Shown here: positions 3,428 through 17,458 of the stretch, piece after piece
Layout: the number at the start of each line of letters is the position of its first letter
Position numbering within the stretch: position 1 is the stretch's first letter
Assembly (NCBI RefSeq): GCF_009834345.1
Contig: NZ_CP035042.1
Coordinates: forward strand, 3,968,001-4,032,000
DNA: 64,000 nucleotides
Origin: Billgrantia tianxiuensis
GTDB lineage: Bacteria; Pseudomonadota; Gammaproteobacteria; Pseudomonadales; Halomonadaceae
Direction of reading: 5' to 3'
The notes under the pieces: generated by a model
Database searches by the model: none
Told to the model about the DNA's origin: nothing
The model's input: only the letters and a program-made list of their open reading frames with translations
Position numbers and translations under genes: made by a program

Positions 3428-4017
3428 GGCTGCGCCCTCTTGGTCAGCTCATCCGCAGTGAAGCCGGCCTTGGTATTGTCGCGCTCAGCCTCGGCAATGG
3501 CGTGGCGGATCTCCTCTTCCTCCTGGGTCACCCCCGAGCGCACCTTGGCCAGGTGAGCCGGCATACTGAGCAGTTGGGCGATGATGAACAGCGCCGCTCC
3601 GATGGGAATCACCGACTGGGTGAAGGTAAGCGGCACCCAACGCAGGGTAATCAGCGACATGCCCTGCATCACCTCGATCACCGTCAGCCCAGCCCAGCAC
3701 AGTACGGCAAAGAAGCCGATGAATAGCGCCTCGGAGAGATAGGCGATCGGCATGCGGATATGCACCGGCATGGCGGCCAGGACTCCGTCGACCCCGATAT
3801 GACCGCGCTTGAGCGCTGCCAGAGCCCCGGCATAGTAGGTCAGCCAGACCAACATGATGGCGGCCACTTCGTCATACCAGGAGGGCGTTCGCCAAGCGTA
3901 ACGGGTCACCACCGCATAGAGCACCACCAACGTCAGCGAAACCATCAATACCACCGTGATGATCTCGAGCAGCCGCTCCATGATGCGGGAAAGCTGATTC
4001 ACGATACCCATGGCCAT
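3424..4017 (-). CDS. dctQ: TRAP transporter small permease DctQ (carrier 1)
   Basis: This is the small four-helix membrane subunit (197 residues) of the TRAP carrier. It shows the typical TRYAWRTPSWYDEVAAIMLVW segment, the GALAALKRGHIGVDGV motif that is conserved in DctQ proteins, and a polar C-terminal tail after about residue 155. It overlaps dctM by 4 bp and follows dctP after an 81 bp gap holding a GC hairpin. The tail (EEEEIRHAIAEAERDN) is somewhat longer than in many DctQ proteins. Confidence 0.93.
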   Translation of the reverse strand: MAMGIVNQLSRIMERLLEIITVVLMVSLTLVVLYAVVTRYAWRTPSWYDEVAAIMLVWLTYYAGALAALKRGHIGVDGVLAAMPVHIRMPIAYLSEALFIGFFAVLCWAGLTVIEVMQGMSLITLRWVPLTFTQSVIPIGAALFIIAQLLSMPAHLAKVRSGVTQEEEEIRHAIAEAERDNTKAGFTADELTKRAQP

Positions 4018-4030
4018 CGACTCGTTCAGG

Positions 4031-4046
4031 GGGGGACAGGTCCCCC
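4031..4046 (-). terminator. GC hairpin between dctP and dctQ (carrier 1)
   Basis: GGGGGA-CAGG-TCCCCC forms a compact 6-bp stem without a strong U tract, in the dctP-dctQ gap. It may act as an attenuating or 3'-stabilising hairpin that keeps dctP mRNA more abundant than the permease message. The same layout occurs in the other two TRAP operons here. Confidence 0.5.
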
Positions 4047-4098
4047 GCGCCAGCGCGCGACGCGGGGAGGTGGAAGCCTCACGGCTGCGCGGGCCGAA

Positions 4099-5073
4099 TC
4101 AAGCGTCGTTACCGAGCTCCAGCACCCTGTCGATCAACTCCTGGGAGCCGGGTACCTCGCTGGCAAAGGCTTCGTAGATCGCATCGGAAGCCTCGATGAA
4201 GGCTGAGGTATCGACTTCGTTCACCTCGGTGTTGGCCTGGCGAATCACGTCGATGAGATCCTCATCGAGCTGGGCGGCATGTTCGTAGACGAACGCCTGG
4301 GTCTCCTTGGCCGCCTCTATGATGATCTCCTGGATCTCGTCGGGGAGGTTGTCGAAGCGACGCCCGGCGGTGAGGTAGGCCGGGGTGTAGACGTGTCCGG
4401 TCAGGGAGAGGTAGTCCTGGACTTCCTGGAAGCGCTGCCCGGCGATCTGGGCCAGCGGATTTTCCTGGCCATCCATGACGCCGGTCTGCAGCGCCATGAA
4501 AACCTCCGAGAGCGACATCGGCGAGGGCTCGGCACCGTACTCCTCGAACATGCGCACGCGCCACACCCCCTGGGGCACCCGCAGCTTGATGCCACGCAGA
4601 TCCTCCGGGGTGTTGATCGGGCGCCGGTTGTTGGTGATGTGGCGAAAGCCGTTCTCCCACACCGCCAGGATCCGATAGCCGTTCTGCTCGGCCAACGGCG
4701 CCAGATGCGGCCAGAAGATCTCCTCCTCTACCCGCTTCATGTGCTCACGGTCCTGAATCAGATAGGGCAGCTCGAAGAGGCCGAACTCGTCCGCGACCGA
4801 GGACATGATGGTAGAAGGCAGCGCCAAGTCGACGGTGCCCAGTCGCATGCGCTGGAGCAGTTCCGAATCGGTGCCCAACTGGCTGGAACCAAAGACCACC
4901 ACCTCGTAGGGCTCGGGCAGACGCTCGTTGACCAACTCGGCGAAATAGTCAGCGGAATCACTAAACAGGGAGTCAGGACCTCCGACATGGCCAAAAGTGA
5001 TTTCACGGGCCTGGAGGGGAGCCGAGACAAAGGCAACAACGGCGGCGACCGCCGTGAGACGTAGCAGGTGCAT
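4099..5073 (-). CDS. dctP: TRAP transporter periplasmic binding protein DctP (carrier 1)
   Basis: This 324-residue extracytoplasmic solute receptor captures a carboxylate and delivers it to DctQM. Residues 1-22 (MHLLRLTAVAAVVAFVSAPL) form a signal peptide ending in LQA-REI. The family core includes ELVNERLPEPYEVVVFGSSQ, ENGFRHITNNRRPINTPEDL, GIKLRVPQ with the substrate-binding arginine, and MDGQENPLAQI. The start at 5073 is supported by AGAGGAAA 7 nt upstream; an earlier in-frame start adds an implausible basic leader. It heads the order dctP-dctQ-dctM-aminotransferase-FAD oxidase. The ligand is unknown. Confidence 0.93.
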   Translation of the reverse strand: MHLLRLTAVAAVVAFVSAPLQAREITFGHVGGPDSLFSDSADYFAELVNERLPEPYEVVVFGSSQLGTDSELLQRMRLGTVDLALPSTIMSSVADEFGLFELPYLIQDREHMKRVEEEIFWPHLAPLAEQNGYRILAVWENGFRHITNNRRPINTPEDLRGIKLRVPQGVWRVRMFEEYGAEPSPMSLSEVFMALQTGVMDGQENPLAQIAGQRFQEVQDYLSLTGHVYTPAYLTAGRRFDNLPDEIQEIIIEAAKETQAFVYEHAAQLDEDLIDVIRQANTEVNEVDTSAFIEASDAIYEAFASEVPGSQELIDRVLELGNDA

Positions 5074-5155
5074 GGCGCGTTTCCTCTTGTTGTAGTGTTG
5101 ACGCTGAAGCATGGCCGTCCGGCACGCCGAATCGCCCGATAGAGCGTCGGCGAAC

Positions 5156-5240: not shown

Positions 5241-6425
5241 TCACTTGATCACCCCCTTGCGACGCAGCACCTCGCAGTGCGCCTGCTCGAAGCCCAGCTC
5301 GGTCATGATCTCATCGGTGTGCTGGGCGTAGAGCGGTGCCGGACGGCGGATCTGCGGCGGCGTGCCAGAGAGCTTGCTGGCAAAACCGATGGTCTTCATC
5401 CTGCCGATGACCGGATGATCCATCTCCTGCACCATGCCGCGCGCCTGATAATGAGGGTCGTCCAGCGCCTGGGCGAAATCGTTGATGGGGCCGGCGGGCA
5501 CGCCCGCCTGGTCGCACTTTGCCAGCCAGGCTTCACGCGTGTCGTGGATGAAAATCTCCTCCAGCAGCGCCTCGAGCGCTTCCACGTTCTGCCCCCGCTG
5601 GTAATTGCTGATGAAGCGCGGATCCTCCAGCAGGTCGGGGCGACCGATCACCTCGTGGCAGAGCCGCTCCCAGTTACGCTGATTGGCGCAGCCCAGCATG
5701 ATGTAACCGTCGCGGACCTTGATCGCCTGGTAGGGCGCCGATACGCGGTGACGCCAGCCGGTGGGCTCGGGCACGGTGCCTTCGGCGAAGAACGCCGCCG
5801 CCTCCCAGGTGAACCAGGGCAGGCCGCACTCTGCAATGGCCACGTCGACGTGCTGCCCCTCGCCGGTGCTCAGCTTGTGGATGTAGGCGGCCAGGATCGA
5901 ATAGACGGCGGTGATGCCCGCCCCGATGTCATAGACGGCGATGCCGGTCTTCAGCGGGCGCCGCCCCGGCTCCCCGGTCATCGACATCAGCCCCGTCATG
6001 CCCTGGGCCACCAGGTCGAAGCCCCCCTTGTGGCTGTAAGGGCCGGTCTGTCCATAGCCGGAGATGGAGCAGTAGATGATGCCGGGGTTGATGGTCTTGA
6101 TGGTCTCGTAATCCACCTTCAGCTTCTTGGCCACGCCGGTGCGATAGTTCTCGACGATGACGTCGGCTTCCTTGGCCAGGCGATAGAAGATCTCGCGCCC
6201 CTCCTCCTCCTTGAGGTTCAGCGAAATGCTCTTCTTGTTGCGGTTGATCTGGGCGAAGCAGGTCGACTCGTCGTTGACGTAAGGTCCCATCTGGCGACTG
6301 TCGTCGCCGCCGTTCTTCTCCACCTTGATGACGTCCGCCCCCAGGTCACCGAGCACCATGGTGCAGTATGGGCCGGCCATGATCTGGGAAATGTCGAGAA
6401 CCTTCATTTTCATTAAGGGGAGCAT
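5241..6425 (-). CDS. CaiB/BaiF family (class III) CoA-transferase
   Basis: This 394-residue class III CoA-transferase moves CoA between carboxylic acids through an aspartyl-CoA intermediate. The N-terminal KVLDISQIMAGPYCTMVLGD, the GADVIKVEKNGGDDSRQMGPY segment, and the catalytic aspartate at about residue 166 in AVYDIGAGITAVY are all present. The start at 6425 has GAGG 8 nt upstream; a GTG three codons earlier and internal ATGs at codons 5 and 7 are alternatives. It follows the crotonase-family gene by 55 bp, so the pair probably activates and then converts one acyl-CoA. Which acid is activated cannot be told from sequence. Confidence 0.92.
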   Translation of the reverse strand: MLPLMKMKVLDISQIMAGPYCTMVLGDLGADVIKVEKNGGDDSRQMGPYVNDESTCFAQINRNKKSISLNLKEEEGREIFYRLAKEADVIVENYRTGVAKKLKVDYETIKTINPGIIYCSISGYGQTGPYSHKGGFDLVAQGMTGLMSMTGEPGRRPLKTGIAVYDIGAGITAVYSILAAYIHKLSTGEGQHVDVAIAECGLPWFTWEAAAFFAEGTVPEPTGWRHRVSAPYQAIKVRDGYIMLGCANQRNWERLCHEVIGRPDLLEDPRFISNYQRGQNVEALEALLEEIFIHDTREAWLAKCDQAGVPAGPINDFAQALDDPHYQARGMVQEMDHPVIGRMKTIGFASKLSGTPPQIRRPAPLYAQHTDEIMTELGFEQAHCEVLRRKGVIK

Positions 6426-6480
6426 GCTTGCCACCTCGTGTCATTGGAGGGAGTGCTGAGGAAAACTCACGGCGCCGGCG

Positions 6481-7275
6481 CTACTCGCCGCGCCAGGCAT
6501 GGGGGGTCTTGTCGACGAAGGCCTTGACGGCGCTCTTGAAGTCGCGGCTGGTATAGCAGAGCGCGATCAGGTCCTCCTCGCTGCCTGCCGGAGGCCGCCG
6601 TGCCGCCAGCACACGGCTGATCTCCTCCTTGGAGGCGCGCAGCGTCAAGGGCGCAAAGCCACCCAGCCTCTCCGCCACTTTCCTGACCTCCGCCTCGATC
6701 TCCTCGGCGGCGACGACCTCGGTGACCAGGCCCGCTTGCTTTGCCTCATCGGCACCGAACAGCTTGGCCAGCATCAACACCTCCTTGGCCCTGGCGGCCC
6801 CGACCAGATCGACCAGGCGCGACACATTGGCAATGGAGACGCAGTTGCCGAGGGTCTTGGCGATAGGCACGCCGAAGCGCAGATCGGGCGTGCAGTAGCG
6901 AAAATCGCAGGCCATGGCGATGGCCGCGCCGCCGCCGACGCAAAACCCTTCAAGCAGAGCGATGGTGGGCTTGCCGAGCGACTCCAGGGCGCCGACGACC
7001 GCGTCGATGCGGTGCTCGTAGTCCAGCGCGTGCTGTGCCGTTTCGAAGCCGGTGAACTGCTTGATGTCGGTACCGGCAACAAAGGCTTCGCCGCCGCTGC
7101 CGCGCAGCACCACTACATCCACTTCCGGGTCCTCGCTCAGAGCATGGCAATGCCGCTCGAGCGTGTCGTACATACCCCAGGTCATGGCATTGCGCACCTG
7201 AGGGCGATTGAAGATCAGCCACGCGATGCGCCCATCCTTGATGAGTTCCAGCTCGGCCGTCGATTTCGGCTCCAT
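6481..7275 (-). CDS. Enoyl-CoA hydratase/isomerase (crotonase) family protein with non-canonical active site
   Basis: This 264-residue crotonase-fold protein has the oxyanion-hole segments AFVAGTDIKQF (about 65-75) and GFCVGGGAAIAMACDFR (110-126). Aligned by eye with classical enoyl-CoA hydratase, both acid/base glutamates are absent. GGGCELAM is GGGAAIAM here, and the FGQPEILLG glutamate falls at FGVPIAKTLG. The reaction is therefore unlikely to be ordinary water addition by the two-glutamate mechanism. An isomerase, hydrolase or decarboxylase role is possible. A strong ribosome site (AGGAGG, 4 nt from ATG) fixes the start. It is first in its operon, about 105 bp downstream of a palindromic promoter-operator at 7378-7409, and is followed by the CoA-transferase. 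Confidence 0.88.
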   Translation of the reverse strand: MEPKSTAELELIKDGRIAWLIFNRPQVRNAMTWGMYDTLERHCHALSEDPEVDVVVLRGSGGEAFVAGTDIKQFTGFETAQHALDYEHRIDAVVGALESLGKPTIALLEGFCVGGGAAIAMACDFRYCTPDLRFGVPIAKTLGNCVSIANVSRLVDLVGAARAKEVLMLAKLFGADEAKQAGLVTEVVAAEEIEAEVRKVAERLGGFAPLTLRASKEEISRVLAARRPPAGSEEDLIALCYTSRDFKSAVKAFVDKTPHAWRGE

Positions 7276-7377: not shown

Positions 7378-7409
7378 TGTAATTATGAACTCATAATTCA
7401 TTTCATCAA
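7378..7409 (-). promoter_or_regulatory. Shared palindromic promoter-operator, copy 1 (crotonase/CoA-transferase operon)
   Basis: AATTATGAACTCATAATT (7381-7398) is a perfect inverted repeat of two 8-bp arms around AC. A 32-bp block around it is identical to 10833-10864. Read on the minus strand, TTGATG and CATAAT lie 16 bp apart and resemble -35 and -10 boxes, so the palindrome covers the spacer and -10 as a repressor site would. The rest of the gap 7276-7643 contains only this site and the hairpin at 7571. Confidence 0.75.
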
Positions 7410-7570
7410 GTTAGACCTTTGGCTAGCGCCCCTAGGGAAGACGGAGACAAACCAATAAGAAACAGCCTGATAGCGGCAAACAGACGGAACGCTGTAACGT
7501 TGTTATGAATTCTGAATTATCATTACCCTGGGATTTGGCTTCCTACGCTGGACGCCCCCACGCGGAGCCC

Positions 7571-7596
7571 CCGGCGGTCCAGCCAGCGACCGCCGG
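7571..7596 (-). terminator. Hairpin downstream of tctA
   Basis: CCGGCGGTC and GACCGCCGG form a perfect 9-bp stem with an 8-nt loop, 48 bp past the tctA stop. There is no clear U tract on the minus-strand transcript, so it may be a weak terminator or an mRNA-stabilising structure. Confidence 0.5.
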
Positions 7597-7643
7597 AAGG
7601 TTCCTACTCAGAATTCACGAAGATAGGTGCGAGTGGACCGGCC

Positions 7644-9167
7644 TCATTCAGCCGTCACCTTGTGACCGCGCCGACGTGCCGTCATGAACAGGCGCTTGCC
7701 GAGCGGATAGAGCACGAACAGCAGGATCAGCGTCAGCAATGTGGCCGCTATCGGACTTCTCAGGAAGATCATCGGATCGCCGCGGGAGATGTCGAGCGCC
7801 TGACGCAGGCTCGTCTCGAGGCGAGGCGTGAGCACGAAGGCCAGCAGCAGCGGCGCAATCGGGTAGCGAGCGGCGGTCATGAAGAAGGCCACCACGCCGG
7901 CACCGAGCATGAACCAGACATCGAACATGCTGTTGTTGACGCTGTAGGATCCCACCACGCACACCACGGCGATGACCGGGATCATGATCGAAGCCGGGAT
8001 CAGCAGCAGCTTGACCAGGAAAGGAATGATCGCCAGCGCCGCCAGTACCGCCATGACATTGCCCAGGTACATGGACGAGATCAGCCCCCAGACGAAGTCG
8101 GGGTTGTTCTGGAACAGCAGCGGCCCGGGCTGCAGGCCCCACATCATCAGCCCGCCAAGCAGTACCGCCGCAGTGCCCGAGCCGGGAATGCCCAGCGACA
8201 GCAGCGGTGCGAACGAGCCGGCGGCGGCGGCGTTGTTGCCCGCCTCCGAGGCCGCCACCCCCTGGATGCGCCCCTTGCCCAGCTCGGCGCCGTTGCGGCC
8301 CACCTTCTTCTCCAGCACATAGGAGAGAAAGGAGCCGGTGGTGGCCCCGGCGCCCGGCAGGATGCCCACCAGGTTGCCGACCACCCCGGAGCGCAGCGAA
8401 ACCGGCACGATGCTGCGCGCCTCCTTGCGGTCGAGCAGGCTCTCCTTCAGCCCCAGCCGGCCGCTCAACCCCTTGGCCGATGGGTCGACCCGGTTGACCA
8501 TCATCACCAACACCTGACTGAAGCCGAACATGCCAATCACCAGCGGAATGAAGGAGATGCCGTTGAGCAGATACATGGAGTCGAAGGTGAAGCGCGGCTG
8601 GCCGAAGGCCGTGCCAATGCCGATCGTCGCCAGCATCACACCGATGAAGGTCGAGATCAGGCCCTTGACGGGGTTGTCCCCCAGCAGCCAGCCGATGGAG
8701 CAAAGCGCCAGCAGGATCAGCGCCGCCACCTCCGCCGGCCCGAACATGAGGCCCACGTGGGCCAGCACGGGCCCCATGAAGGTGAGCATGACGATGCCCA
8801 CGGTACCGCCGATGAACGAGGAGATGTTGGCGGTAAACAGGGCCTTGCCGCCATGCCCCTGCTGCGACAGCGGATAGCCGTCCAGCGAGGTCACCACGGC
8901 CGGTGCGTCGCCGGGGATGTTGAGCAGGATGGCACTGTAGGAGCCGCCGTACATGCAGCCGTAATAGAGAGCCCCGAGCATGATGATGCCGGTGATGGGG
9001 TCCATCTGGAAGGTGAGCGGCAACAGCAGGGCGATGCCGGTGACCGAACCGAGGCCGGGAATGGCCCCGACGATGATGCCGAGGCCGGCACCGACCAGGG
9101 CCGCCAGGATGTTGCTGAACGTCAACGAGGTGGCAAACCCCAGCATCAGGGACTGTAGAATATCCAT
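7644..9167 (-). CDS. tctA: Tripartite tricarboxylate transporter large permease TctA
   Basis: This is the large (507 residues, about 12 helices) inner-membrane subunit of a TTT-family carrier, a binding-protein-dependent secondary carrier for citrate-like and other carboxylates. Two pseudo-symmetric signatures are visible: GAIPGLGSVTGIALLLPLTF with YYGCMYGGSYSAILLNIPGD near the N-terminus, and GILPGAGATTGSFLSYVLEK with NNAAAAGSFAPLLSLGIPGS in the middle. It is last in the operon tctC-tctB-tctA and starts 19 bp after tctB. The substrate is not predictable. Confidence 0.95.
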   Translation of the reverse strand: MDILQSLMLGFATSLTFSNILAALVGAGLGIIVGAIPGLGSVTGIALLLPLTFQMDPITGIIMLGALYYGCMYGGSYSAILLNIPGDAPAVVTSLDGYPLSQQGHGGKALFTANISSFIGGTVGIVMLTFMGPVLAHVGLMFGPAEVAALILLALCSIGWLLGDNPVKGLISTFIGVMLATIGIGTAFGQPRFTFDSMYLLNGISFIPLVIGMFGFSQVLVMMVNRVDPSAKGLSGRLGLKESLLDRKEARSIVPVSLRSGVVGNLVGILPGAGATTGSFLSYVLEKKVGRNGAELGKGRIQGVAASEAGNNAAAAGSFAPLLSLGIPGSGTAAVLLGGLMMWGLQPGPLLFQNNPDFVWGLISSMYLGNVMAVLAALAIIPFLVKLLLIPASIMIPVIAVVCVVGSYSVNNSMFDVWFMLGAGVVAFFMTAARYPIAPLLLAFVLTPRLETSLRQALDISRGDPMIFLRSPIAATLLTLILLFVLYPLGKRLFMTARRRGHKVTAE

Positions 9168-9186
9168 ACGGGGACTCTTCGTTCGG

Positions 9187-9660
9187 TTAGGAGAACAGCG
9201 CCATGAGCGCGCCTTCAGGGAACGCCACCATCAGCCACATACCGAACAGCAGATAGATCGCACCGCCCGCGCAGGCGCCGATCACCACGGACTTGAGCCA
9301 CGACTGCCGTTCGATCAACGCCATCCACAGCACGATGAACAGCGTCATTGCCAGCACCATGCCGAACAGCGCTATGCTGGCGATGGCCAGCCCCATGGCC
9401 AAGGCGGGCCACAGATTGCGCCAGACCACGCGATCCGTCTCGAACCTGCAGCGTAGCAGCTCGTAGCCGCCAAACAGAGCGGTACCCAGCCCCGCCACCA
9501 AGGCAAAGAAGCCAGCCCCGGGGCCGTTGTGCATCCATACCCCATACTTCCACCAACCGAAGCCAGCCCAGGCGAGCCCCATCGCGATGATGCCCAGTGT
9601 GACCAGTGGAGAGAGCCAGGAACGGCCCTCATGGGCCGGCTCATGATTCACGCTTGACAT
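9187..9660 (-). CDS. tctB: Tripartite tricarboxylate transporter small permease TctB
   Basis: This is the small membrane subunit (157 residues) of the TTT carrier. It has four predicted membrane helices (about residues 18-36, 48-68, 85-115 and 125-148) and the GPGAGFFALVAGLGTALFGG segment typical of the family. It lies between tctC (100 bp upstream) and tctA (19 bp downstream). Identification rests on topology, size and context, since TctB proteins are weakly conserved. Confidence 0.9.
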   Translation of the reverse strand: MSSVNHEPAHEGRSWLSPLVTLGIIAMGLAWAGFGWWKYGVWMHNGPGAGFFALVAGLGTALFGGYELLRCRFETDRVVWRNLWPALAMGLAIASIALFGMVLAMTLFIVLWMALIERQSWLKSVVIGACAGGAIYLLFGMWLMVAFPEGALMALFS

Positions 9661-9722
9661 AGTGTGCGCCTCTTGCGGTAGCGGCCGACCGGGGATAAAC
9701 GAAGTGACCGCAGCAACGACCG

Positions 9723-9752
9723 GGGCGCAGCCACCCAGCGGCGGCCGCGCCC
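9723..9752 (-). other. Weak GC hairpin between tctC and tctB
   Basis: GGGCGC and GCGCCC can pair across an 18-nt loop just downstream of the tctC stop. It could play the same role as the dctP-dctQ hairpins, but in GC-rich DNA a 6-bp stem is weak evidence. Confidence 0.25.
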
Positions 9753-9760
9753 TGCGAGCC

Positions 9761-10729
9761 TCAGTCGATCATGCCGGCCTCCTGGAACATCGCCCGGTAG
9801 CGCTCCTGCTCGCGCTGGTAGTACTCGGCGCTCTCCTCGGCTCCCATGAACGTTGGAATCAGACCGTTGTTCTCGACGTACTCCTGGGTCCACTTGTCCG
9901 TTTCCGAAGCGGCACGGAAGACGTTCTCCCAGAACTCGACGGCCTCCTCGGGCATGTCGGGAGGGCCGGCATAGCCACGGAAGATCATCAGCTCGAGGCC
10001 TTCATAGCCCAGCTCGTCGAAGGTCGGCACCTCGTCGAAGGGAGCATCGAGACGATCCTCCGAATAGGTGGCCAGGAAGCGGACCATGCTCTGGTCGACC
10101 CGCGAGCCGAGCTTGAAGATGGCCGCATCGATATGACCGCCCAGCAAGGCGGAAGTGACGTCACCGGTACCGTCGAAGGGGACGTACTGAAACTCGACGC
10201 CCAGGTTATCGTTGAGCATGGCGAAGGCCAGGTGGTCCTCGCCGCCGCGGCCGGCCCCACCGACGGTGACACCGCCAGGATCCTGCTCGGCACGCTCGAT
10301 CAGGCCTGCAAGATCCTCGATGTCGCCCTCGGCTCTGACCCCCACGAACAGCGTATCCAGCGACAACGTGGCGAGCGGCGTGAGGTCGTCCAGCTGTACC
10401 GAGGCGTCGTTGACCACCATGCTCATCATCTGCCCACCGTTGAAGGTCGTGATGGTATGGCCATCGCCGCGCTTGCTGAAGGTGTAGCTGTTGCCTACCG
10501 CGCCGGAGCCGCCGGGCCGGTTGTTGATCAGAATGTTGCGGTTGACCATGTCGGTCTCGCGAATCGCCTCGACCAGCATGCGTGCGTTGATGTCGCTGCC
10601 GCCACCGGCGCTGTATGGCACCACGAATTCGACGTTGCGCTGCGGCTCCCAGGCGTGGGCGCCGCCAACCAGAGCCAGGCAGAGCACTCCGCAGAGTGCG
10701 GTCTTGCCGACCATCAGTGTTTTCGTCAT
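9761..10729 (-). CDS. tctC: Tripartite tricarboxylate transporter binding protein TctC (Bug family)
   Basis: This 322-residue periplasmic receptor of the Bug/TctC family supplies ligand to TctBA. A signal peptide (MTKTLMVGKTALCGVLCLAL through AHA) precedes the family motif PQRNVEFVVPYSAGGGSDI. ILINNRPGGSGAVGNSYT and the GGAGRGGEDHLAFAML segment are also characteristic. It is the first gene of the operon. The leader contains an ACAACGACAA-type sequence at 10746-10756 and, about 105 bp upstream, the shared palindromic promoter-operator. The ligand is unknown. Confidence 0.94.
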   Translation of the reverse strand: MTKTLMVGKTALCGVLCLALVGGAHAWEPQRNVEFVVPYSAGGGSDINARMLVEAIRETDMVNRNILINNRPGGSGAVGNSYTFSKRGDGHTITTFNGGQMMSMVVNDASVQLDDLTPLATLSLDTLFVGVRAEGDIEDLAGLIERAEQDPGGVTVGGAGRGGEDHLAFAMLNDNLGVEFQYVPFDGTGDVTSALLGGHIDAAIFKLGSRVDQSMVRFLATYSEDRLDAPFDEVPTFDELGYEGLELMIFRGYAGPPDMPEEAVEFWENVFRAASETDKWTQEYVENNGLIPTFMGAEESAEYYQREQERYRAMFQEAGMID

Positions 10730-10832
10730 TTCTCGATCACCCTGTTTGTCGTTGTCGGTTCAGAAGCCGTCGCCAAGGCATGGCGGCAACTGGCGTGCGA
10801 GTACGGGTCGGATGGGCGTTTCCCCCGTCTTA

Positions 10833-10864
10833 TGTAATTATGAACTCATAATTCATTTCATCAA
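10833..10864 (-). promoter_or_regulatory. Shared palindromic promoter-operator, copy 2 (tctCBA operon)
   Basis: AATTATGAACTCATAATT at 10836-10853 sits in a 32-bp block identical to 7378-7409. It has the same orientation and nearly the same distance to the start codon (about 105 bp). On the minus strand a TTGATG / CATAAT pair is formed as in copy 1. Confidence 0.75.
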
Positions 10865-10901
10865 TGTCGACTTTGGTCTACTCGCTGTGAGCAGTCGACC
10901 T

Positions 10902-11894
10902 TCATGAGGGATGCGGCACGCCTGGTCTCGCGGATGCCACTTGCCGGCGCAGCTCCGCCACCAGCTCGGCGGCGGCGCTGGAGAGCGGTTCGCGCTTGCG
11001 GGTGATGATGCCGTAGTAGTCCAGCGGCTTGCCGATGGTCAGCGGCAGCACCGCGTACTGGCCGCTGGCCAGAGGACGCTTGAGCACCGACCAGGGCAAT
11101 ACCGCCAGCATCGGCGCGTTCAGTAGCAGTTGCAGGGTGGTCTGAGTCGAGGTGGTCTCGATGGTGTCGTCGGGCGAGGCGATGCCGGCGTCGGCCAGCG
11201 CGGCCTCGATGACCTGCCGCATGGGGCTGGTGGGCGGGTGCAGAACCCACGGCCAGTGGCACAGCGCCGCGAGCTCGACCCGCTCCTGGCTGGCCAGAGG
11301 ATGGTCGTGAGCCACCACGACGCGCAGCGGCTCCTCGAGCAGCGGCTCGAAGTCGAACAGGTTGTGCTGGTTCACCGCCGTGAGCCGGCCGATCACCAGG
11401 TCGAGCTGCTTGTATTCGAGGGCCTGCAGCAAACGGTCGCTGCTCTGCTCGTCGATGCTGACCGACAGTCGCGGCCGCCGTTGCTTGAGCGAGGCAATGG
11501 CCGCCGGCAGGATCTCGGGAGCGGCCGCCGGAATGGCACCGATCAGCAGCCGCCCGTAGCCGCCCTCGCGCATGCGCTGGACGTCCTCAACCATTCTTTC
11601 TATGTCGTTGAGCAGGATCTCGGCATGCCTCACCAGCTGAGCCCCCAACTCGGTCGGCACCATCGCCCGCGGCTGGCGTTCGAAGATGGCGAAGCCGAAA
11701 TGGGTCTCCAGGTCGCGCAGCATCTTGCTGGCCGCCGGCTGGCTGAGATGCATCTGTCGGGCGGCGGCGCGCATGTTGCGGCGCTTGTCGAGGTGAACCA
11801 GCAGCAGCAGGTGCTTGAAGCGCATCCAGCCGCACAGGCCGGTCGATGACAATTTGTCCAAGACGTTCGGCCTCTGATAACCAATAGCGATCAC
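10902..11894 (-). CDS. LysR family transcriptional regulator
   Basis: This LysR-type regulator has an N-terminal winged HTH (MRFKHLLLLVHLDKRRNMRA, then LSQPAASKMLRDLE) and a C-terminal ligand-binding domain (LLIGAIPAAAPEILPAAIAS, VVVAHDHPLASQERVE). It belongs to the group with a short leader before the HTH, like the CbbR-unrelated galactose-binding regulators. The start is uncertain: a GTG at 11894 gives 330 residues and an ATG at 11825 gives 307. Neither has a convincing ribosome site. It is divergent from the fuconate dehydratase-type gene, with paired TGATAACCA elements in between, so that gene is its most likely target. The tctC promoter lies just behind it. Confidence 0.9.
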   Translation of the reverse strand: MIAIGYQRPNVLDKLSSTGLCGWMRFKHLLLLVHLDKRRNMRAAARQMHLSQPAASKMLRDLETHFGFAIFERQPRAMVPTELGAQLVRHAEILLNDIERMVEDVQRMREGGYGRLLIGAIPAAAPEILPAAIASLKQRRPRLSVSIDEQSSDRLLQALEYKQLDLVIGRLTAVNQHNLFDFEPLLEEPLRVVVAHDHPLASQERVELAALCHWPWVLHPPTSPMRQVIEAALADAGIASPDDTIETTSTQTTLQLLLNAPMLAVLPWSVLKRPLASGQYAVLPLTIGKPLDYYGIITRKREPLSSAAAELVAELRRQVASARPGVPHPS

Positions 11895-12020
11895 TAACCT
11901 TAGGCGCCGCTTTGAGCGGCATCAACCAACGCCCCGCTGCCGTCAGGCGTCTTGACCTGACTGCTCGGTATCCTCAAAGGTCACGGCGAGCCTGCAACGC
12001 ACACTGATAACCATTGGTTA
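11875..12020. promoter_or_regulatory. Candidate LysR boxes between the regulator and fucD
   Basis: CTGATAACCA occurs at 11874-11883 and again at 12004-12013. The second copy extends into a 13-bp perfect palindrome TAACCATTGGTTA (12008-12020), about 100 bp upstream of fucD. A near repeat in a divergent LysR intergenic region fits a regulator-binding array; assignment is by position only. Confidence 0.45.
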
Positions 12021-12121
12021 ACGGAGTTACGAAAAAAACGATTGGCAGGTTATTGAATTGGCCGCCAGGCTGGGTTGGACAACAAATCTTTACTTCCCTT
12101 AGACCTTGCTGGATTGTCGCC

Positions 12122-13426
12122 ATGCCCACCATCACCCGCCTCGAGGTTCAGGACATCCGCTTCCCTACCTCGCGCTCGCTGGACGGCTCCGATGCCATGA
12201 ACGCGGCACCGGACTACTCCGCCACCTACGTCACCCTGCACACCGATGCCGGAAACGGGCTCAGCGGCCACGGCCTGACCTTCACCATCGGCCGCGGCAA
12301 TGAAATCTGCGTCAAGGCCGTCGAGTCTCTGGCCTACCTGATCGAGGGTCGCCGGCTCGACGACATCACCACCGAGATGGGCCGCTTCTGGCGCGAGCTG
12401 ACCAGCGGCGACAGCCAGCTGCGCTGGATCGGGCCGGAAAAGGGCGCGATCCACCTAGCCACGGCGGCCATCGTCAACGCCGTCTGGGATCTGTGGGCCA
12501 AGGCAGAAGGCAAGCCGGTGTGGAAGCTGCTGGTCGACATGCCGCCCGAGCAGCTGATTCGCTGCCTCGACTTCCGCTTCGTCACCGATGCCCTGACGCC
12601 CGAGGAAGCGCTGGGGTTGCTCCGGCGCAATGCCGCCGGCCGCGCCGACCGTGAACGGGAGATGCGCGAGCAGGGCTACCCGGCCTATACCACCTCGGCC
12701 GGCTGGCTCGGCTACGACGACGACAAGGTGCGGCGCCTGGCGCGCGAGGCGTTGGCCGAAGGCTGGACGCACTTCAAGCAGAAGGTAGGCGGCAACCTCG
12801 AAGAGGATCGCCGCCGCGCCCAGATCCTACGCGAGGAGATCGGCTGGGAGCGCACCCTGATGATGGACGCCAACCAGATGTGGGACGTCGACGAGGCGAT
12901 CGCCAACATGCGCCGGCTGGCCGAATTCGATCCGCTGTGGATCGAGGAACCGACCAGCCCCGACGACATCCTCGGCCACGCCGAGATCCGCCGCCGACTG
13001 GGCTCGATCGGGGTGGCCACCGGCGAGCACTGTCACAACCGGGTGATGTTCAAGCAGTTGCTGCAGGCCGGCGCCCTCGACTACTGCCAGGTCGATGCCG
13101 CCCGTCTCGGCGGGTTGAACGAGGTCATCGTGGTACTGCTGCTGGCCGCCAAGCATGGCGTGCCGGTCTGTCCTCATGCCGGCGGCGTCGGGCTCTGCGA
13201 GTACGTGCAGCACGTCTCGCTGTTCGACTATATCGCCGTTTCGGGCTCCCTCGAGGGGCGCATCCTCGAGTACGTCGATCATCTGCATGAGCACTTCTTG
13301 CACCCCGTGACGATCCGCAACGGCCGCTATCAGGTACCGACCGCCCCCGGCTACAGCATCAGCCTCCACCCCGAGTCGCTGTCGCGCCACGTCTACCCGG
13401 ACGGCGCCGCCTGGCAGGATAGCTGA
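12122..13426 (+). CDS. fucD: L-fuconate dehydratase-type enolase superfamily enzyme
   Basis: This 434-residue mandelate-racemase/enolase superfamily dehydratase closely resembles L-fuconate dehydratase, which converts L-fuconate to 2-keto-3-deoxy-L-fuconate. The N-terminal capping part contains FPTSRSLDGSDAMN and LTFTIGRGNEI. The barrel has the FKQKVGG lysine motif, metal ligands around MMDANQMWDV and WIEEPTSPDD, and GEHCHNRVMFKQLLQAGALD. The start at 12122 was chosen because the upstream extension has no family similarity. It is followed by the PdxA-like gene after 22 bp. The lactonase-type amidohydrolase at 18376 could supply its substrate. A related six-carbon or five-carbon aldonate is possible instead. 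Confidence 0.87.
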   Translation: MPTITRLEVQDIRFPTSRSLDGSDAMNAAPDYSATYVTLHTDAGNGLSGHGLTFTIGRGNEICVKAVESLAYLIEGRRLDDITTEMGRFWRELTSGDSQLRWIGPEKGAIHLATAAIVNAVWDLWAKAEGKPVWKLLVDMPPEQLIRCLDFRFVTDALTPEEALGLLRRNAAGRADREREMREQGYPAYTTSAGWLGYDDDKVRRLAREALAEGWTHFKQKVGGNLEEDRRRAQILREEIGWERTLMMDANQMWDVDEAIANMRRLAEFDPLWIEEPTSPDDILGHAEIRRRLGSIGVATGEHCHNRVMFKQLLQAGALDYCQVDAARLGGLNEVIVVLLLAAKHGVPVCPHAGGVGLCEYVQHVSLFDYIAVSGSLEGRILEYVDHLHEHFLHPVTIRNGRYQVPTAPGYSISLHPESLSRHVYPDGAAWQDS

Positions 13427-13448
13427 CCCACTGCGAAGGAGACCCGAG

Positions 13449-14465
13449 ATGACCCACTCAAGACCCTGCATCGCCGTGCCCCTGGGCGACCCGGCGGGCA
13501 TCGGCCCCGAGCTGGTCGCCAAGCTGCTGGCCGACCGCCAGGCAATCGAAGGGGCCGACGTGGTGGTGGTGGGCGACCCCTGGCTGTGGCAGGAAGGCCA
13601 GCGGGTGGCCGGCACTTCTCTTACGCTGCCCGAGATCGCCTCCTGGGAGCAGGTCCGCGGCCAGGCCGGCCCCGTACTGCTGCCGCTGGACACCATCCGG
13701 CCAGAGGAGGTCGAGTTCGGCCGGGTCGATGCCGCCTGCGGTGCCTCGGTGCTGAAGGTGCTGGCCCACTGCCTGGACGCTGCCCAGGCGGGACGAATCG
13801 ATGCCATCTGCTTTGCGCCGCTCAACAAGCTGGCCATGAAGCGGGGCGGCCTGCGCCATGAGGACGAGCTGCACTTCTTCGCCGAATACCTGCAGGTCCC
13901 GGGAGAGGTGTGCGAGTTCAATACTCTCGGCAGCCTCTGGACCTCGCGCATCTCCTCCCACGTGCCGCTCAGCGAGGCCGCCAGCTACGTCACGCCGGAG
14001 CGCATCCTGAATGCCACCCGCCTGATTCACGATGCCCTGGTGGCAGCGGGCGTGACGCAGCCGCGCATCGCGGTGGCGGCGATCAACCCCCACGCCGGCG
14101 AGGGCGGCACCTGCGGACGAGAGGAGATCGACGTCATCGCGCCCGCCGTCGAGGCCTGCATCGCCGCCGGCTATTCGGCCCAGGGCCCTTTCCCCGCCGA
14201 CACCCTCTTTCGCCGCGCCCGCGACGGCGAGTTCGACGCCGTCGTCACCATGTACCACGACCAGGGCCAGATCGCCCTCAAGCTGCTGGGCTTCGAGCGC
14301 GGCGTCACCGTTCAGGGCGGCCTGCCGATTCCCATCACCACACCGGCCCATGGCACCGCCTTCGACATCGTCGGCCAGGGCAAGGCCAGCGTGGAAGCCA
14401 TGCGTCACGCCTTCGCCATCGCCTGCCGGATGGGCGCGCATCATGCCCTCAACCGCAGCGCTTAG
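13449..14465 (+). CDS. PdxA-family 4-phosphate dehydrogenase (catabolic PdxA paralogue)
   Basis: This 338-residue NAD-dependent, metal-dependent dehydrogenase/decarboxylase of the PdxA family has IAVPLGDPAGIGPELVAKLL at the N-terminus. The three histidine sites are SSHVPLSEA, INPHAGEGGTCG and TTPAHGTAFDIVGQ, and MYHDQGQIALKLLGF is present. In B6 synthesis PdxA acts on 4-hydroxythreonine 4-phosphate. In catabolic clusters PdxA2 paralogues act on threonate or erythronate 4-phosphate. Here it sits beside an acid-sugar dehydratase and not with pyridoxine genes, so a catabolic role is inferred. A good ribosome site (AAGGAGA) precedes the ATG. Confidence 0.87.
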   Translation: MTHSRPCIAVPLGDPAGIGPELVAKLLADRQAIEGADVVVVGDPWLWQEGQRVAGTSLTLPEIASWEQVRGQAGPVLLPLDTIRPEEVEFGRVDAACGASVLKVLAHCLDAAQAGRIDAICFAPLNKLAMKRGGLRHEDELHFFAEYLQVPGEVCEFNTLGSLWTSRISSHVPLSEAASYVTPERILNATRLIHDALVAAGVTQPRIAVAAINPHAGEGGTCGREEIDVIAPAVEACIAAGYSAQGPFPADTLFRRARDGEFDAVVTMYHDQGQIALKLLGFERGVTVQGGLPIPITTPAHGTAFDIVGQGKASVEAMRHAFAIACRMGAHHALNRSA

Positions 14466-14525
14466 CCCGCATTGATGAACATGAGACGCAACGCGAGGTA
14501 GACGAAAGTATATATAAAAATAATG

Positions 14526-14543
14526 AATTATGAGTTCATAATA
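14526..14543 (+). promoter_or_regulatory. Shared palindromic promoter-operator, copy 3 (second TRAP operon)
   Basis: AATTATGAGTTCATAATA is the same palindrome as copies 1 and 2 read on the other strand, with one changed base. The similarity extends a few bases on each side. It is about 85 bp upstream of dctP and oriented toward it, as the other copies are toward their genes. Confidence 0.7.
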
Positions 14544-14628
14544 ACATTAGCTTTTCAAAGGCACGCCCGCATCCCTGGGCAGAGCCCCAGGGCATGGCAC
14601 CCGCCCTACAACAACAACGAGGTCCAAC

Positions 14629-15621
14629 ATGAAGCTCAAACACCGGTTCCCACTCACCCTTGCGGCAGCCTTTGTCCTTGGGCTTGCCTCCGCTTCCGTC
14701 TCCGCCACTACTTTGCGTTACGCTCATGTCGGCGCGGAAGGCGACGCGCAGACCCGCTTCGCCTCGGAAGCCTCCGCCGCCATCGAGGAAGCCACCAACG
14801 GCGGCGTCAGCATTACCATCTTTCCGGCCAGCCAGCTGGGCGGCGTGTCCGAAATGGTGAACGGCGTCTCGCTGGGCTCCATTTCCATGGCCCACCACGA
14901 GTTTGCGTCCCTGGCACAATCCGTACCGGACATCGCCGTGTTCAACGCGCCCTTCATCTATCGCGATGCGGAGCATGCGCTCAGGGCCACGGACCCCACC
15001 TCGCCGGTCATCAGCGAAATGAACGAACAGCTGATCGAAGAGGCCGGCATGCGCATCATCGGCAGGATGTATCGCGGCGCTCGCCACATCACGGCCAACT
15101 TCCCCGTGACATCTCCCGACGATCTGGCGGGCAAGCCGTTTCGTGCCGTACCGCTCGACATCTGGATCTCCATGGTTCGGGGCTTTGGCGCGGACCCCAC
15201 CCCGGTAGAAGTCTCGGAACTCCCCACCTCCCTGATGACGGGACTGGTCGTGGGTCAGGAAAACCCCTTGACCATGATCCGCTCCGACAACCTGCACGAA
15301 GTGCAGTCGCATGTCTCCATGACCGGCCACATGCACTCCATCCTCGCCGTCTTCATCAACGAGAACGTATGGCAGTCCCTGGACGAGGAGTACCAGGAGG
15401 CCATCACCAACGTGCTGACGGAGAAAGCGGAAGAGTCCCTGCGCTGGGCGCAAGAGACCGAAGATGAGCTCATCGAGGAGCTGACACAGCGCGGCATGAC
15501 CATCATCACCGAAGAGGATGGCTTGGATATCGATGCCTTCCGCGAGCAGGTACTGGCACAGATCAACCGCGACTACCCCAATTTCGAGCCCTACATCGAG
15601 ATGATCGGGGAAGTGGAGTAA
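14629..15621 (+). CDS. dctP: TRAP transporter periplasmic binding protein DctP (carrier 2)
   Basis: This is a 330-residue solute receptor. A signal peptide (MKLKHRFPLTLAAAFVLGLA, cleaved near VSA-TTL) is followed by LRYAHVGAEGDAQTRFASEA, FPASQLGGVSEMVNGVSLGS, MYRGARHITANFPVTSPDDL, the GKPFRAVPLDIW arginine segment and VGQENPLTMI. It starts the operon dctP-dctQ-dctM-dehydrogenase-amidohydrolase. It differs clearly from the carrier 1 protein, so the two carriers probably take different acids. Confidence 0.93.
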   Translation: MKLKHRFPLTLAAAFVLGLASASVSATTLRYAHVGAEGDAQTRFASEASAAIEEATNGGVSITIFPASQLGGVSEMVNGVSLGSISMAHHEFASLAQSVPDIAVFNAPFIYRDAEHALRATDPTSPVISEMNEQLIEEAGMRIIGRMYRGARHITANFPVTSPDDLAGKPFRAVPLDIWISMVRGFGADPTPVEVSELPTSLMTGLVVGQENPLTMIRSDNLHEVQSHVSMTGHMHSILAVFINENVWQSLDEEYQEAITNVLTEKAEESLRWAQETEDELIEELTQRGMTIITEEDGLDIDAFREQVLAQINRDYPNFEPYIEMIGEVE

Positions 15622-15657
15622 CGGTCCAGCTAGAGCAACTACCCAGCTGCCCATACA

Positions 15658-15685
15658 CCGGCGAGGGGCAATGGCCTCTCGCCGG
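15658..15685 (+). terminator. GC hairpin between dctP and dctQ (carrier 2)
   Basis: CCGGCGAG and CTCGCCGG form an 8-bp perfect stem, extendable by inner pairs, 36 bp past the dctP stop and 22 bp before dctQ. It lacks a U tract, so it is read as an mRNA-processing or attenuating structure. Confidence 0.5.
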
Positions 15686-15707
15686 AACATGACCCGATGG
15701 GTGAAAA

Positions 15708-16175
15708 ATGAGATACGGAAAAAAGTGGCTCGAGATTTTCTGCGCCTTGCTTCTTGCCGGCATGATCCTGGTTCCTTTCCTGCAAGTGCTTTCTCGTGAT
15801 CTGCTCGGCACCTCGATCCCCGGCTCCGGCGAACTGACACGCTTTCTCTTGATTTGCCTCGTCTTTTCATCCTATCCGCTGGTCATCGCCAGCGGCGAGA
15901 ACATACAGATGTCGGAGCTGCGTGACGCCCTTCCGGCAATGCCGAGACGATGGCTGAACCGGCTGATCATGGTGGCCTCAATCATCATTTGCCTATTTGT
16001 TGCCTACTCCGCCGCCACCACCGTGCAGACAAATTTCAACAGGGCGACCCCGGTACTGAAAATCCCCTACTGGATCTTTTTCGGCACCACCGTTCTTGGC
16101 CTCCTAGGCGCAGCCCTGGTTCATCTTCTGCAAGGCACGAGCACGATCGATAACAAATCCGACTCCGGCGTATAA
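15708..16175 (+). CDS. dctQ: TRAP transporter small permease DctQ (carrier 2)
   Basis: This 155-residue four-helix subunit shows the pattern KKWLEIFCALLLAGMILVPF, VLSRDLLGTSIPGSGELTRF, LVIASGENIQMSELRDALPA and a last helix ending near LVHLLQG. ASGENIQM takes the place of the usual KRGxHI motif. dctM follows after 9 bp. Confidence 0.9.
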   Translation: MRYGKKWLEIFCALLLAGMILVPFLQVLSRDLLGTSIPGSGELTRFLLICLVFSSYPLVIASGENIQMSELRDALPAMPRRWLNRLIMVASIIICLFVAYSAATTVQTNFNRATPVLKIPYWIFFGTTVLGLLGAALVHLLQGTSTIDNKSDSGV

Positions 16176-16184
16176 GGCACCTCC

Positions 16185-17458
16185 ATGGGCTTGATCATCC
16201 TCGGCATCTTTCTCGTTCTCTTTCTGCTCGGGTTTCCGGTCGTCTATGCGATCCTGATTCCTTCTGCGATCTACGTGTTACTCGAAGGCCTGCCGCTGGG
16301 CCTGATGGGGCAGCGAGTCACCTATGCCCTGGACAGCTTCCCCCTGGTGGCCGTCCCTATCTTCATCTTCGTCGGCAACCTGATGAACCAGTCGGGCATC
16401 ACCGACCGGATCTTCCATTTCGCCAATACCCTGGTGGGCCGGGCGCCGGGGGACTGGCTCAGGTCAACATATTCTCCAGTCTGATCTTTTCCGGCATGTC
16501 GGGCGCCGCGCTTGCCGACGTCGGCGGGCTGGGCAAGATCGAGATAGAGGCAATGAAGAAGCGCGGCTACGGAGCGCCCTTCTCCGCCGCCGTTACGGCA
16601 TCTTCAGCCGTCGTCGGCCCCATCTTTCCGCCCAGCATTCCTCTTATCGTCTATGGCTCGGTCACCAGCGTATCGATCGTTCAACTGCTACTGGCCGGCA
16701 TCGTACCGGCATTGATCTGTATCGCGCTGCTGATGATCACAGCGGCATTGCTGGCCCTGCGCCACGACATGCCGAGAGCCGAGCGCTGGCCAACGCTCAT
16801 GGAACTCAATCGCGCCTTCATCCCGGCCTTGCCCGCCCTGCTGGCCCCAGCACTGATGATCTCGGGCATGCTCATGGGACTGTTCACTCCCACGGAAGCG
16901 GCCGCGGTAACGGCAGCCTATGTCGTCTTCATCAGCTCCGTTCTCTATCGGGAGCTCACCTGGTCGCACCTCGTGTTCTCCCTACTGGCCACACTCAGGA
17001 CCACCAGTGCCATCCTGATCATCGTGGCGGCAGCGGCCATGTTCGGCTGGATACTCTCCGTCGAGCAAATTCCCCAGCGCTTCGCCGCCTTCATCCTGCA
17101 AATATCGCACGAGCCACTGGTCCTGCTGCTGATCGCCAATCTCATCTTCCTGGTGGCAGGAATCTTCCTGGACTCCACCACCGCGACCCTGTTGATCGTC
17201 CCGATCGTGGCACCGCCCATGGTGCTCGCCGGCGTCGACCCCGTTCACCTGGGCATCGTGTGTATCTTCAACCTGATGATCGGTCTGCTGACGCCGCCGA
17301 TGGGTCTCTCGCTGTTCCTCGTCTCTTCCATTGCCAAGGTATCGCTGCGGCAGTTGTTGAAAGCACTGGTCCCCTTCTACATCCCACTCATCGCCACCTT
17401 GGCCATCATCACCTTCGCCGCCGATCTGGTGCTGTGGCTGCCAAGCTTCATGCGCTGA
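16185..17458 (+). pseudogene. dctM: TRAP transporter large permease DctM (carrier 2), single-base frameshift
   Basis: As read, the frame breaks at the G run 16448-16452 (five G). One extra G joins residues 1-88 (ending HFANTLVGRAPG) to GLAQVNIFSSLIFSGMSGAA and yields a 424-residue DctM, the normal family length. Both halves carry intact signatures: FPLVAVPIFIFVGNLMNQSG before the break, and VVGPIFPPSIPLIVYGSV and MIGLLTPPMGLSLFLVSSIA after it. Everything else is undamaged, and the next genes overlap or follow closely, so a base-calling error is more likely than a real pseudogene. If real, carrier 2 is dead. Confidence 0.9.

What the first reader, a model, noticed from the sequence alone, without database searches (positions are those of the whole stretch)
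7378..14547. One palindromic promoter-operator shared by three separate uptake operons
The 18-bp palindrome AATTATGAACTCATAATT occurs at 7381, 10836 and (one mismatch) 14526, always 85-110 bp upstream of a first gene and in the same orientation relative to it. The first two lie in 32 bp of identical sequence. The arms cover the -10/-35 spacer of a plausible sigma-70 promoter. This links a crotonase/CoA-transferase pair, a TTT carrier and a TRAP operon with dehydrogenase and lactonase into one regulon, controlling two unrelated carrier types at once. The FCD-type GntR at 19374 is the best candidate regulator; the LysR at 10902 is a second.
Basis: partly seen in the sequence, partly recalled or inferred. 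Interest (0 to 1): 0.72.

Follow-up and report, generated by a model that had tools for sequence, protein, structure and literature searches.

The report
Shared repressor-activator promoter for uptake operons
Three neighbouring nutrient-uptake operons in a Halomonas-type bacterium carry the same two-part switch, most likely a landing site for a local GntR repressor laid over a promoter that also bears an acetate-type activator box, so three different carriers are probably turned on together.

Summary
AATTATGA-NN-TCATAATT occurs at 7381, 10836 and 14526 and, at up to 3 mismatches, nowhere else in the 5.0 Mb genome. All 12 genomes of the genus (of 90) with an ortholog (84% identity or more) of the FCD-type GntR at 19374 carry the palindrome before two or three of the corresponding operons; three of them lack the LysR. 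GntR relatives at 56-60% (5 of 6 loci), and at 44-47% in Alphaproteobacteria (7 of 7), keep near-versions beside their own clusters. The LysR is not needed. It resembles the ACTU box of the acetate regulator CrbR/ErdR; a matrix from acs and actP/DUF294 promoters ranks the three boxes 1, 2 and 5 of 127,974 window positions. Best model: ErdR-type activation plus GntR repression by covering the promoter core, and gntR autoregulation. Binding, sign of control and effector are untested. A conserved variant of a familiar design, not a new kind of system.

The parts
7381..7398 (-). Operator O1 (AATTATGA-NN-TCATAATT), 105 bp upstream of the crotonase gene; right arm CATAAT (7382-7387) is the predicted -10
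   Evidence: conserved in relatives
7404..7409 (-). Predicted -35 (TTGATG) of operon 1
7412..7425 (-). ACTU-like (CrbR/ErdR-type) box TAGCCAAAGGTCTA, 13 bp upstream of O1
   Evidence: 2 mismatches to TAGACNAAAGTCTA; rank 2 of 127,974 window positions by the acs/actP/DUF294 matrix
7501..7518 (.). Weak second operator 120 bp from O1 (4 mismatches); counterparts 99-122 bp from the crotonase/CoA-transferase operator in 9 of 10 relatives whose stretch covers it
6481..7275 (-). Crotonase-family gene, first gene of operon 1
5241..6434 (-). Class III CoA-transferase gene
2144..5112 (-). TRAP carrier dctP1-dctQ1-dctM1 of operon 1
10836..10853 (-). Operator O2, 106 bp upstream of tctC; -10 CATAAT at 10837-10842
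10859..10864 (-). Predicted -35 (TTGATG) of the TTT operon
10867..10880 (-). ACTU-like box TAGACCAAAGTCGA, 13 bp upstream of O2
   Evidence: rank 1 of 127,974
7644..10729 (-). TTT carrier tctC-tctB-tctA
   Evidence: tctC; tctB, tctA
14499..14512 (+). ACTU-like box TAGACGAAAGTATA, 13 bp upstream of O3
   Evidence: rank 5 of 127,974
14526..14543 (+). Operator O3 (1 mismatch), 85 bp upstream of dctP2; CATAAT at 14537-14542 as possible -10, no good -35
   Evidence: not found by the sigma-70 scan
14629..17458 (+). TRAP carrier dctP2-dctQ2-dctM2; dctM2 changes frame here
   Evidence: dctP2; dctM2, profile positions 103-410 only; dctQ2 named from position
17477..19293 (+). 3-hydroxyisobutyrate-type dehydrogenase and lactonase-type amidohydrolase
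19374..20027 (-). FCD-type GntR, proposed repressor of O1-O3 and of itself
20057..20074 (-). Weak operator over a TTGACG-17-CATAAT sequence (20058-20086) 29 bp before the gntR start codon; no activator box; proposed autoregulation
   Evidence: (score 17.9; best of 20 mononucleotide shuffles of the window 15.6)
10902..11894 (-). LysR-type regulator, rejected as reader of the palindrome
12008..12020 (.). TAACC-N3-GGTTA upstream of the dehydratase gene, candidate site of the LysR
12122..14465 (+). Fuconate-dehydratase-like enolase-superfamily gene and pdxA-like gene, upstream of O3

Best explanation
The palindrome is the operator of the FCD-type GntR encoded at 19374-20027. It lies over the core of the promoters of three operons; at O1 and O2 its right arm CATAAT is the predicted -10. 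GntR bound there should keep RNA polymerase off until its effector, probably an acid or CoA-linked intermediate of the cluster, releases it. A weaker operator lies over the gntR promoter (autoregulation). Each target promoter also has a box close to TAGACNAAAGTCTA 13 bp upstream of the operator. This resembles the ACTU box of the LuxR-family regulator CrbR/ErdR, and activator bound there would help polymerase. So the operons should fire when ErdR is active and GntR is released, switching on two TRAP carriers and one TTT carrier together. Shown by sequence: unique sites, conservation with the GntR, constant box-operator gap, box identity by a separately built matrix. Inferred: binding, repression, the effector, activation by ErdR.
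For: Uniqueness: 3 places in 5.0 Mb at up to 3 mismatches. Genus scan at up to 1 mismatch: 12 of 90 genomes, 23 places, against 1 place for the reversed control. GntR orthologs at 84% or more in 12 of 90 genomes, 10 shared with the motif set (Fisher 7e-10, not corrected for kinship or linkage). All 12 ortholog loci have the palindrome at two or three operon starts (up to 2 mismatches, except 3 at the tctC site of G040; the crotonase operon of G086 was outside the stretch fetched); G018, G040 and G043 have no LysR ortholog. Litchfieldella, Vreelandella and Aidingimonas keep it before dctP2. At up to 3 mismatches it is in 5 of 6 loci with a 56-60% GntR and 7 of 7 alphaproteobacterial loci (44-47%; classes); resampled expectation 0 to 0.17 per locus (6 resamples each), and 0 matches in 107 other loci, partly overlapping, 424,715 bases. 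The recognition region is near-invariant in 14 GntRs. Box: ranks 1, 2, 5 of 127,974; gap to operator best at 13 bp in 29 of 40 promoters, 12 in 3, 14 in 3, elsewhere in 5. An ErdR-like regulator beside a hybrid kinase, between acs and the DUF294/CBS gene, is in this genome. P. fluorescens ACTU lies at -52 to -36, just upstream of the RpoD promoter (PMC5715377, passages).
Against: No binding or expression data. G064 and G073 have the palindrome before the crotonase gene without a close GntR ortholog, though both assemblies are fragmentary (85% and 79% complete) and hold GntRs of 50-56%. G027 has a lone match without cluster genes, probably chance. TAGACNAAAGTCTA at up to 2 mismatches is not enriched genome-wide (34 against 41 for the control). 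The box is weak (4 mismatches) at 6 of the relatives' dctP promoters and not recognisable in 3 of 34 promoters; it is absent in the alphas. In nine ALDH-operon promoters of relatives the box is only 6 bp from the operator, so the geometry is not universal. The matrix seed was chosen after seeing the window boxes. The ErdR NCBIfam match is below its curated cut-off (267 of 390 bits). In P. aeruginosa most tested ErdR targets rose when erdR was deleted (PMC9927353, passages), so ErdR could repress here.
Confidence: 0.8

Rival explanations
1. The LysR at 10902 reads the palindrome and controls the three operons.
For: It lies next to O2, and its orthologs (68% or more) occur in 11 of 90 genomes, 7 of them with the motif at up to 1 mismatch (Fisher 3e-5). 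G064 has LysR and palindrome without a close GntR ortholog.
Against: The palindrome persists in G018, G040 and G043 and in the alphaproteobacterial loci without a LysR hit. G022 has the LysR and no palindrome. A candidate site of its own, TAACC-N3-GGTTA, lies upstream of the dehydratase gene in the four genomes with LysR of 95% identity or more; this exact pattern was not found in the loci with LysR of 67-76%.
Confidence: 0.04
2. The GntR reads the palindrome, but the upstream box belongs to another regulator than ErdR/CrbR (another LuxR-type protein of this genome), so the second input is not acetate-type.
For: The genome has 15 GerE-domain matches over the cut-off; the ErdR model match is below its cut-off; the core here is GAC-N-AAAG-T, slightly different from the actP/DUF294 sites.
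Against: The matrix from acs and actP/DUF294 promoters ranks the three boxes 1, 2 and 5 in the window, and the box lies just upstream of the promoter as in the mapped P. fluorescens acs promoter.
Confidence: 0.27
3. The 32 bp shared by O1 and O2 are only a recent duplication, or the AT-rich palindrome is a structural or nucleoid-protein site without a specific regulator.
For: O1 and O2 share 32 identical bases; the motif is AT-rich.
Against: Only three copies in the genome; O3 has different flanks but the same box at the same 13 bp; sites recur at the orthologous promoters in 12 genomes and, changed in detail, in other genera and a second class.
Confidence: 0.02

Closest known systems
FCD-subfamily GntR local repressors (PdhR, LldR, GlcC, PrpR/PA0797 type)
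   Same: Same two domains (PF00392 + PF07729), gene beside its targets, palindromic site over the promoter, candidate autoregulation site
   Different: Below the cut-off of all 25 NCBIfam models it matched; operator core TGA-NN-TCA with ATT arms differs from the TGGT-N-ACCA type of PdhR/LldR (recalled); combined with an activator-type box at constant spacing
CrbS/R (MxtR/ErdR) ACTU promoters, PMC5715377, PMC8402216 and PMC9927353 (passages read)
   Same: Imperfect inverted repeat immediately upstream of a sigma-70 promoter; ErdR is already reported at some carboxylate carrier promoters of P. aeruginosa (dctA, PA5530)
   Different: Core published targets are acs, actP, scpC and a CBS-domain gene; here the box precedes TRAP and TTT operons and is followed by a GntR operator
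PcaQ-type LysR regulators
   Same: Best NCBIfam match of the LysR at 10902
   Different: 189.5 bits against a cut-off of 303.8; concerns the neighbouring dehydratase/pdxA genes rather than the palindrome

Membership tests
FCD-type GntR regulator | GntR winged helix plus C-terminal FCD domain over curated cut-offs | tested here: met
   70.9 of 27 and 88.3 of 24.3 bits
FCD-type GntR regulator | Metal/ligand residues (N/D, H, H, H) of the FCD pocket | tested here: met
   N132, H136, H180, H202 invariant in 14 of 14 aligned; that these are the metal residues is recalled
FCD-type GntR regulator | Binds a short palindrome at its target promoters, released by a ligand | not testable with these tools
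   Only co-distribution and position are shown
CrbR/ErdR (ACTU) controlled promoter | ACTU-type inverted repeat directly upstream of a sigma-70 promoter | tested here: met
   Ranks 1, 2, 5 of 127,974 by the acs/actP/DUF294 matrix; sigma-70 match at two of three promoters
CrbR/ErdR (ACTU) controlled promoter | CrbS/CrbR pair present in the genome | tested here: inconclusive
   Response regulator matches ErdR at 267 bits, cut-off 390; adjacent 1302-aa hybrid kinase, no SSF domain reported by Pfam
CrbR/ErdR (ACTU) controlled promoter | Expression depends on CrbR/ErdR | not testable with these tools
   Needs mutants and reporters
PcaQ LysR | NCBIfam TIGR02424 cut-off | tested here: not met
   189.5 of 303.8 bits

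The most novel reading that the evidence does not exclude
In the Halomonas group an acetate-type two-component regulator (ErdR/CrbR) gates a whole set of uptake systems through a portable promoter cassette: an activator box followed, at 13 bp or in one operon of relatives at 6 bp, by the operator of a pathway-specific GntR over the promoter core. Carriers of different families (two TRAP types, TTT) are exchanged between species under the same cassette.
Probability: 0.45. Interest if true: 0.58.

Novelty: new variant of a known kind. Interest (0 to 1): 0.4.

Why it matters
It gives an unnamed GntR subfamily, found in Halomonas-group bacteria and in Aurantimonas/Aquamicrobium, a specific predicted operator and regulon. 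It would add TRAP and TTT carriers to the reach of the CrbR/ErdR box (ErdR was already found at dctA and PA5530 promoters in P. aeruginosa, PMC9927353, passages). Two natural spacings between the same box and the same operator are a ready test of how a repressor and an activator share one small promoter.

Tried and rejected
Chance or simple AT-richness: rejected. O1 and O2 as a mere duplication: not enough, because O3 and the relatives keep the same box and operator. GlcC (20067) as regulator: considered but not scanned across genomes; it scores over the GlcC cut-off (380 of 301 bits) and lies beside a glcD-like gene. A plasmid search with the 7300-7660 region found nothing. Genome-wide enrichment of the activator box at up to 2 mismatches: not seen (34 against 41), so the case for the box rests on its position at three promoters, its conservation and the matrix. 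An unguided motif sampler found the TAGACCA-type box in the DUF294/actP regions but only fragments of it in the acs regions.

Withdrawn on re-check: I had read as showing that the distance from box to -10 (24 nt) stays constant while the operator moves. That script searched only 18-30 nt and broke ties towards 24. One search, with 14-33 nt, shows that in all nine ALDH-operon promoters the best TATAAT-like hexamer is the operator's own CATAAT at 17 nt (1 mismatch); the hexamer at 24 nt is poorer (CATATT in 4, CACATT in 2, CAAAGT in 3; 2-3 mismatches). So either the -10 lies at 24 nt and the operator moved, or the -10 stays in the operator and the box is 7 bp nearer; this is open. In the main class the 24 nt is only the 13 bp gap restated, because CATAAT is part of the operator; in three of those promoters a closer TATAAT match lies at 30 nt.

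The substrate was not settled: the dehydratase scores 560 bits against L-fuconate dehydratase 1yey/2hne, but higher against the mitochondrial enolase superfamily member 1 entry 4a35 (607) and 4ip4 (584); the amidohydrolase resembles L-fuconolactonase below its cut-off (104.5 of 400 bits); PDB hits for dctP2 are too broad to name a ligand. Paper searches for a link of ErdR/CrbR with a GntR, for ACTU elsewhere, and for TTT/TRAP with an FCD GntR listed no paper whose title or abstract start describes this arrangement; passages were read in five papers only, and the library lacks most subscription journals.

Rows and selections: the 34 promoters are the best site before each crotonase/CoA-transferase, tctC or dctP gene that I picked (12 genomes plus one G073 site). 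Sites before gntR, the weak second sites and the ALDH-operon sites were kept out of that count and are shown: none of them has the box at 13 bp; the nine ALDH-operon sites have it at 6 bp (2-4 mismatches). Six promoters of the 56-60% group were added (40 in all). Of 60 acs and DUF294 regions, 42 gave a site at up to 1 mismatch to the seed (14 distinct; 1.5% of shuffled regions do); the other 18 were not used. Of the 21 loci, one search examined 10 (L088, L095-L103); the other 11 have the contig lengths of genomes already seen under G handles. L055 and L061 were added to that call.
Full report
OBSERVATION. The palindrome is real and exact at 7381 and 10836 and has one mismatch at 14526. In the whole 5.0 Mb genome nothing else matches AATTATGA-NN-TCATAATT at up to 3 mismatches; the reversed-pattern control gave one place. 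The orientation claim holds: in 34 of 34 promoters (12 genomes with the GntR ortholog plus one G073 site, sites picked by me) the centre reads GT towards the gene, and the four bases before the palindrome are always AATG.

WHO READS IT. In 90 genomes of the genus, 12 carry the palindrome at up to 1 mismatch (23 places; control 1 place). Orthologs of the GntR at 84% identity or more occur in 12 of the 90 (54 of 90 have some match at 1e-40), 10 of them in both sets. The other two, G006 and G049, have sites with 2 mismatches at the right promoters. Each of the 12 ortholog loci has the palindrome at two or three operon starts: before the crotonase or CoA-transferase gene (11 of 11; in G086 that operon was outside the stretch fetched), before a dctP gene (12 of 12) and before tctC wherever a TTT carrier was found in the stretch (9 of 9, including the window; 3 mismatches in G040). 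LysR orthologs (68% or more) occur in 11 genomes. G018, G040 and G043 keep the palindromes without it; G022 has it without the palindrome. Named relatives include Billgrantia desiderata, B. ethanolica, B. aerodenitrificans and Halomonas cupida. Litchfieldella xinjiangensis, Vreelandella sedimenti and Aidingimonas lacisalsi also keep the site before dctP2 (2, 2 and 1 mismatches); the box 13 bp upstream is exact in Aidingimonas, has 3 mismatches in Vreelandella and is not at 13 bp in Litchfieldella.

DEEPER FOOTPRINT. A sister GntR group (56-60% identity) sits beside clusters that resemble operon 1 of the window. In 5 of 6 such loci there is one match at up to 3 mismatches (core TGAATTCA) between gntR and dctP1, on the gntR side and without the box; nearer dctP1, weaker palindromes have a box with 3 mismatches at 13 bp (5 of 6; 14 bp in L077). 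In six Aurantimonas loci and one Aquamicrobium locus (GntR 44-47%; Alphaproteobacteria) there is exactly one match at up to 3 mismatches, always in the gap beside the aminotransferase gene, without LysR or box; the expected number from first-order resampling is 0 to 0.17 per locus, and 107 other loci (424,715 bases, partly overlapping) have none. The recognition region (GVSRTPxREAxKVL) and N132, H136, H180, H202 are kept in all 14 aligned GntRs. Contrary cases: G064 and G073 have the palindrome before the crotonase gene but no close GntR ortholog; both assemblies are fragmentary (85% and 79% complete).

THE SECOND BOX. Upstream of all three window palindromes, at exactly 13 bp, lies a 14-mer close to TAGACNAAAGTCTA (7412-7425 with 2 mismatches, 10867-10880 and 14499-14512 with 1). 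It resembles the ACTU inverted repeat required for CrbR activation in Pseudomonas fluorescens (predicted matches listed there include TACGACTAAAGTCTAAA; acs motif at -52 to -36, immediately before the RpoD promoter; PMC5715377, passages). A matrix built from acs and actP/DUF294 upstream regions of the genus (14 distinct sites; the seed was chosen after seeing the window boxes) ranks the three window boxes 2, 1 and 5 among 127,974 positions. The actP-like gene is a sodium:solute symporter by Pfam; its finer name is judged from sequence. This genome has an ErdR-like response regulator (267 bits, below the curated 390) next to a 1302-aa hybrid kinase, between acs and the DUF294/CBS gene. In the published work CrbR activates acs and actP; in P. 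aeruginosa ErdR was also found at dctA and PA5530 promoters, and most tested targets were higher without erdR (PMC9927353, passages), so the sign of its action here is open.

GEOMETRY. At O1 and O2 a sigma-70 scan finds TTGATG-16-CATAAT with CATAAT inside the palindrome; at O3 the -35 is poor. Among the 34 promoters a credible box (up to 4 mismatches) is followed by the operator at 13 bp in 27, at 12 bp in three and at 14 bp in one; three have no credible box. Relatives have a fourth operon (aldehyde dehydrogenase, plus a dehydrogenase), absent from the window cluster, whose operator is only 6 bp from a box with 2-4 mismatches (9 of 9). Which hexamer is the -10 there is open: the operator's own CATAAT lies 17 nt after the box, a poorer hexamer 24 nt after it. 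The gntR promoter itself (TTGACG-17-CATAAT, 20058-20086) carries a weak operator and no box; in the 11 other ortholog loci a candidate site lies upstream of gntR too, but in G018, G049 and G006 it scores within the range of shuffled sequence.

MODEL. GntR blocks the promoters until its effector appears; an ErdR-type activator helps polymerase. Operon 1 includes a TRAP carrier, so the switch covers three carriers (TRAP, TTT, TRAP) plus CoA-transferase, crotonase, dehydrogenase and lactonase-type enzymes. In several relatives dctP2QM2 is replaced by a different TRAP set while the promoter stays (G021, G053, G040, G049, G006), and G086 has both, each with the palindrome. The substrate is not settled; the neighbouring dehydratase is nearest to L-fuconate dehydratase and enolase superfamily member 1.

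STATUS. Shown: sites, uniqueness, conservation, constant 13 bp gap in most target promoters, box identity by a separately built matrix. Inferred: binding, sign of control, effector, ErdR as activator. My odds are about 0.93 for the GntR as reader of the palindrome and about 0.65-0.7 for an ErdR/CrbR-type box. In design this is a conserved variant of familiar repressor-plus-activator promoters.

Noticed in passing
16172-16640: dctM2 of the window changes reading frame near its N-terminal quarter, while relative G001 reads through in one frame, and the main frame matches only profile positions 103-410 of DctM; broken gene or assembly indel, described only.
   Followed up: partly
1-857: The FAD oxidase gene at the left edge (240-857) also changes frame; with the previous item and a completeness of 95% against 99-100% for most listed relatives this suggests residual indel errors in the assembly (inference).
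   Followed up: partly
7501-7518: A weaker palindrome 120 bp from O1, with counterparts 99-122 bp from the crotonase/CoA-transferase operator in 9 of 10 relatives covered; function (looping or a second promoter) unexplained.
   Followed up: partly
L065, L068, L070-L073: The TRAP carrier after pdxA has been exchanged for a different TRAP type in several species while promoter, GntR and enzymes stay; G086 (L070) has both.
   Followed up: partly
12008-12020: TAACC-N3-GGTTA upstream of the dehydratase gene, present in the four genomes with LysR of 95% identity or more and not in the more distant LysR loci; candidate site of the LysR.
   Followed up: partly
L104, L105, L106: Three exact TAGACCAAAGTCTA copies elsewhere in the genome: upstream of a cysteine-rich (CCG) domain gene (L104), about 350 bp upstream of a gene judged GST-like from its sequence and after an intradiol-dioxygenase-type gene (L105), and in the gap before a TRAP dctP gene but on the opposite strand (L106); possible further ErdR targets.
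   Followed up: partly
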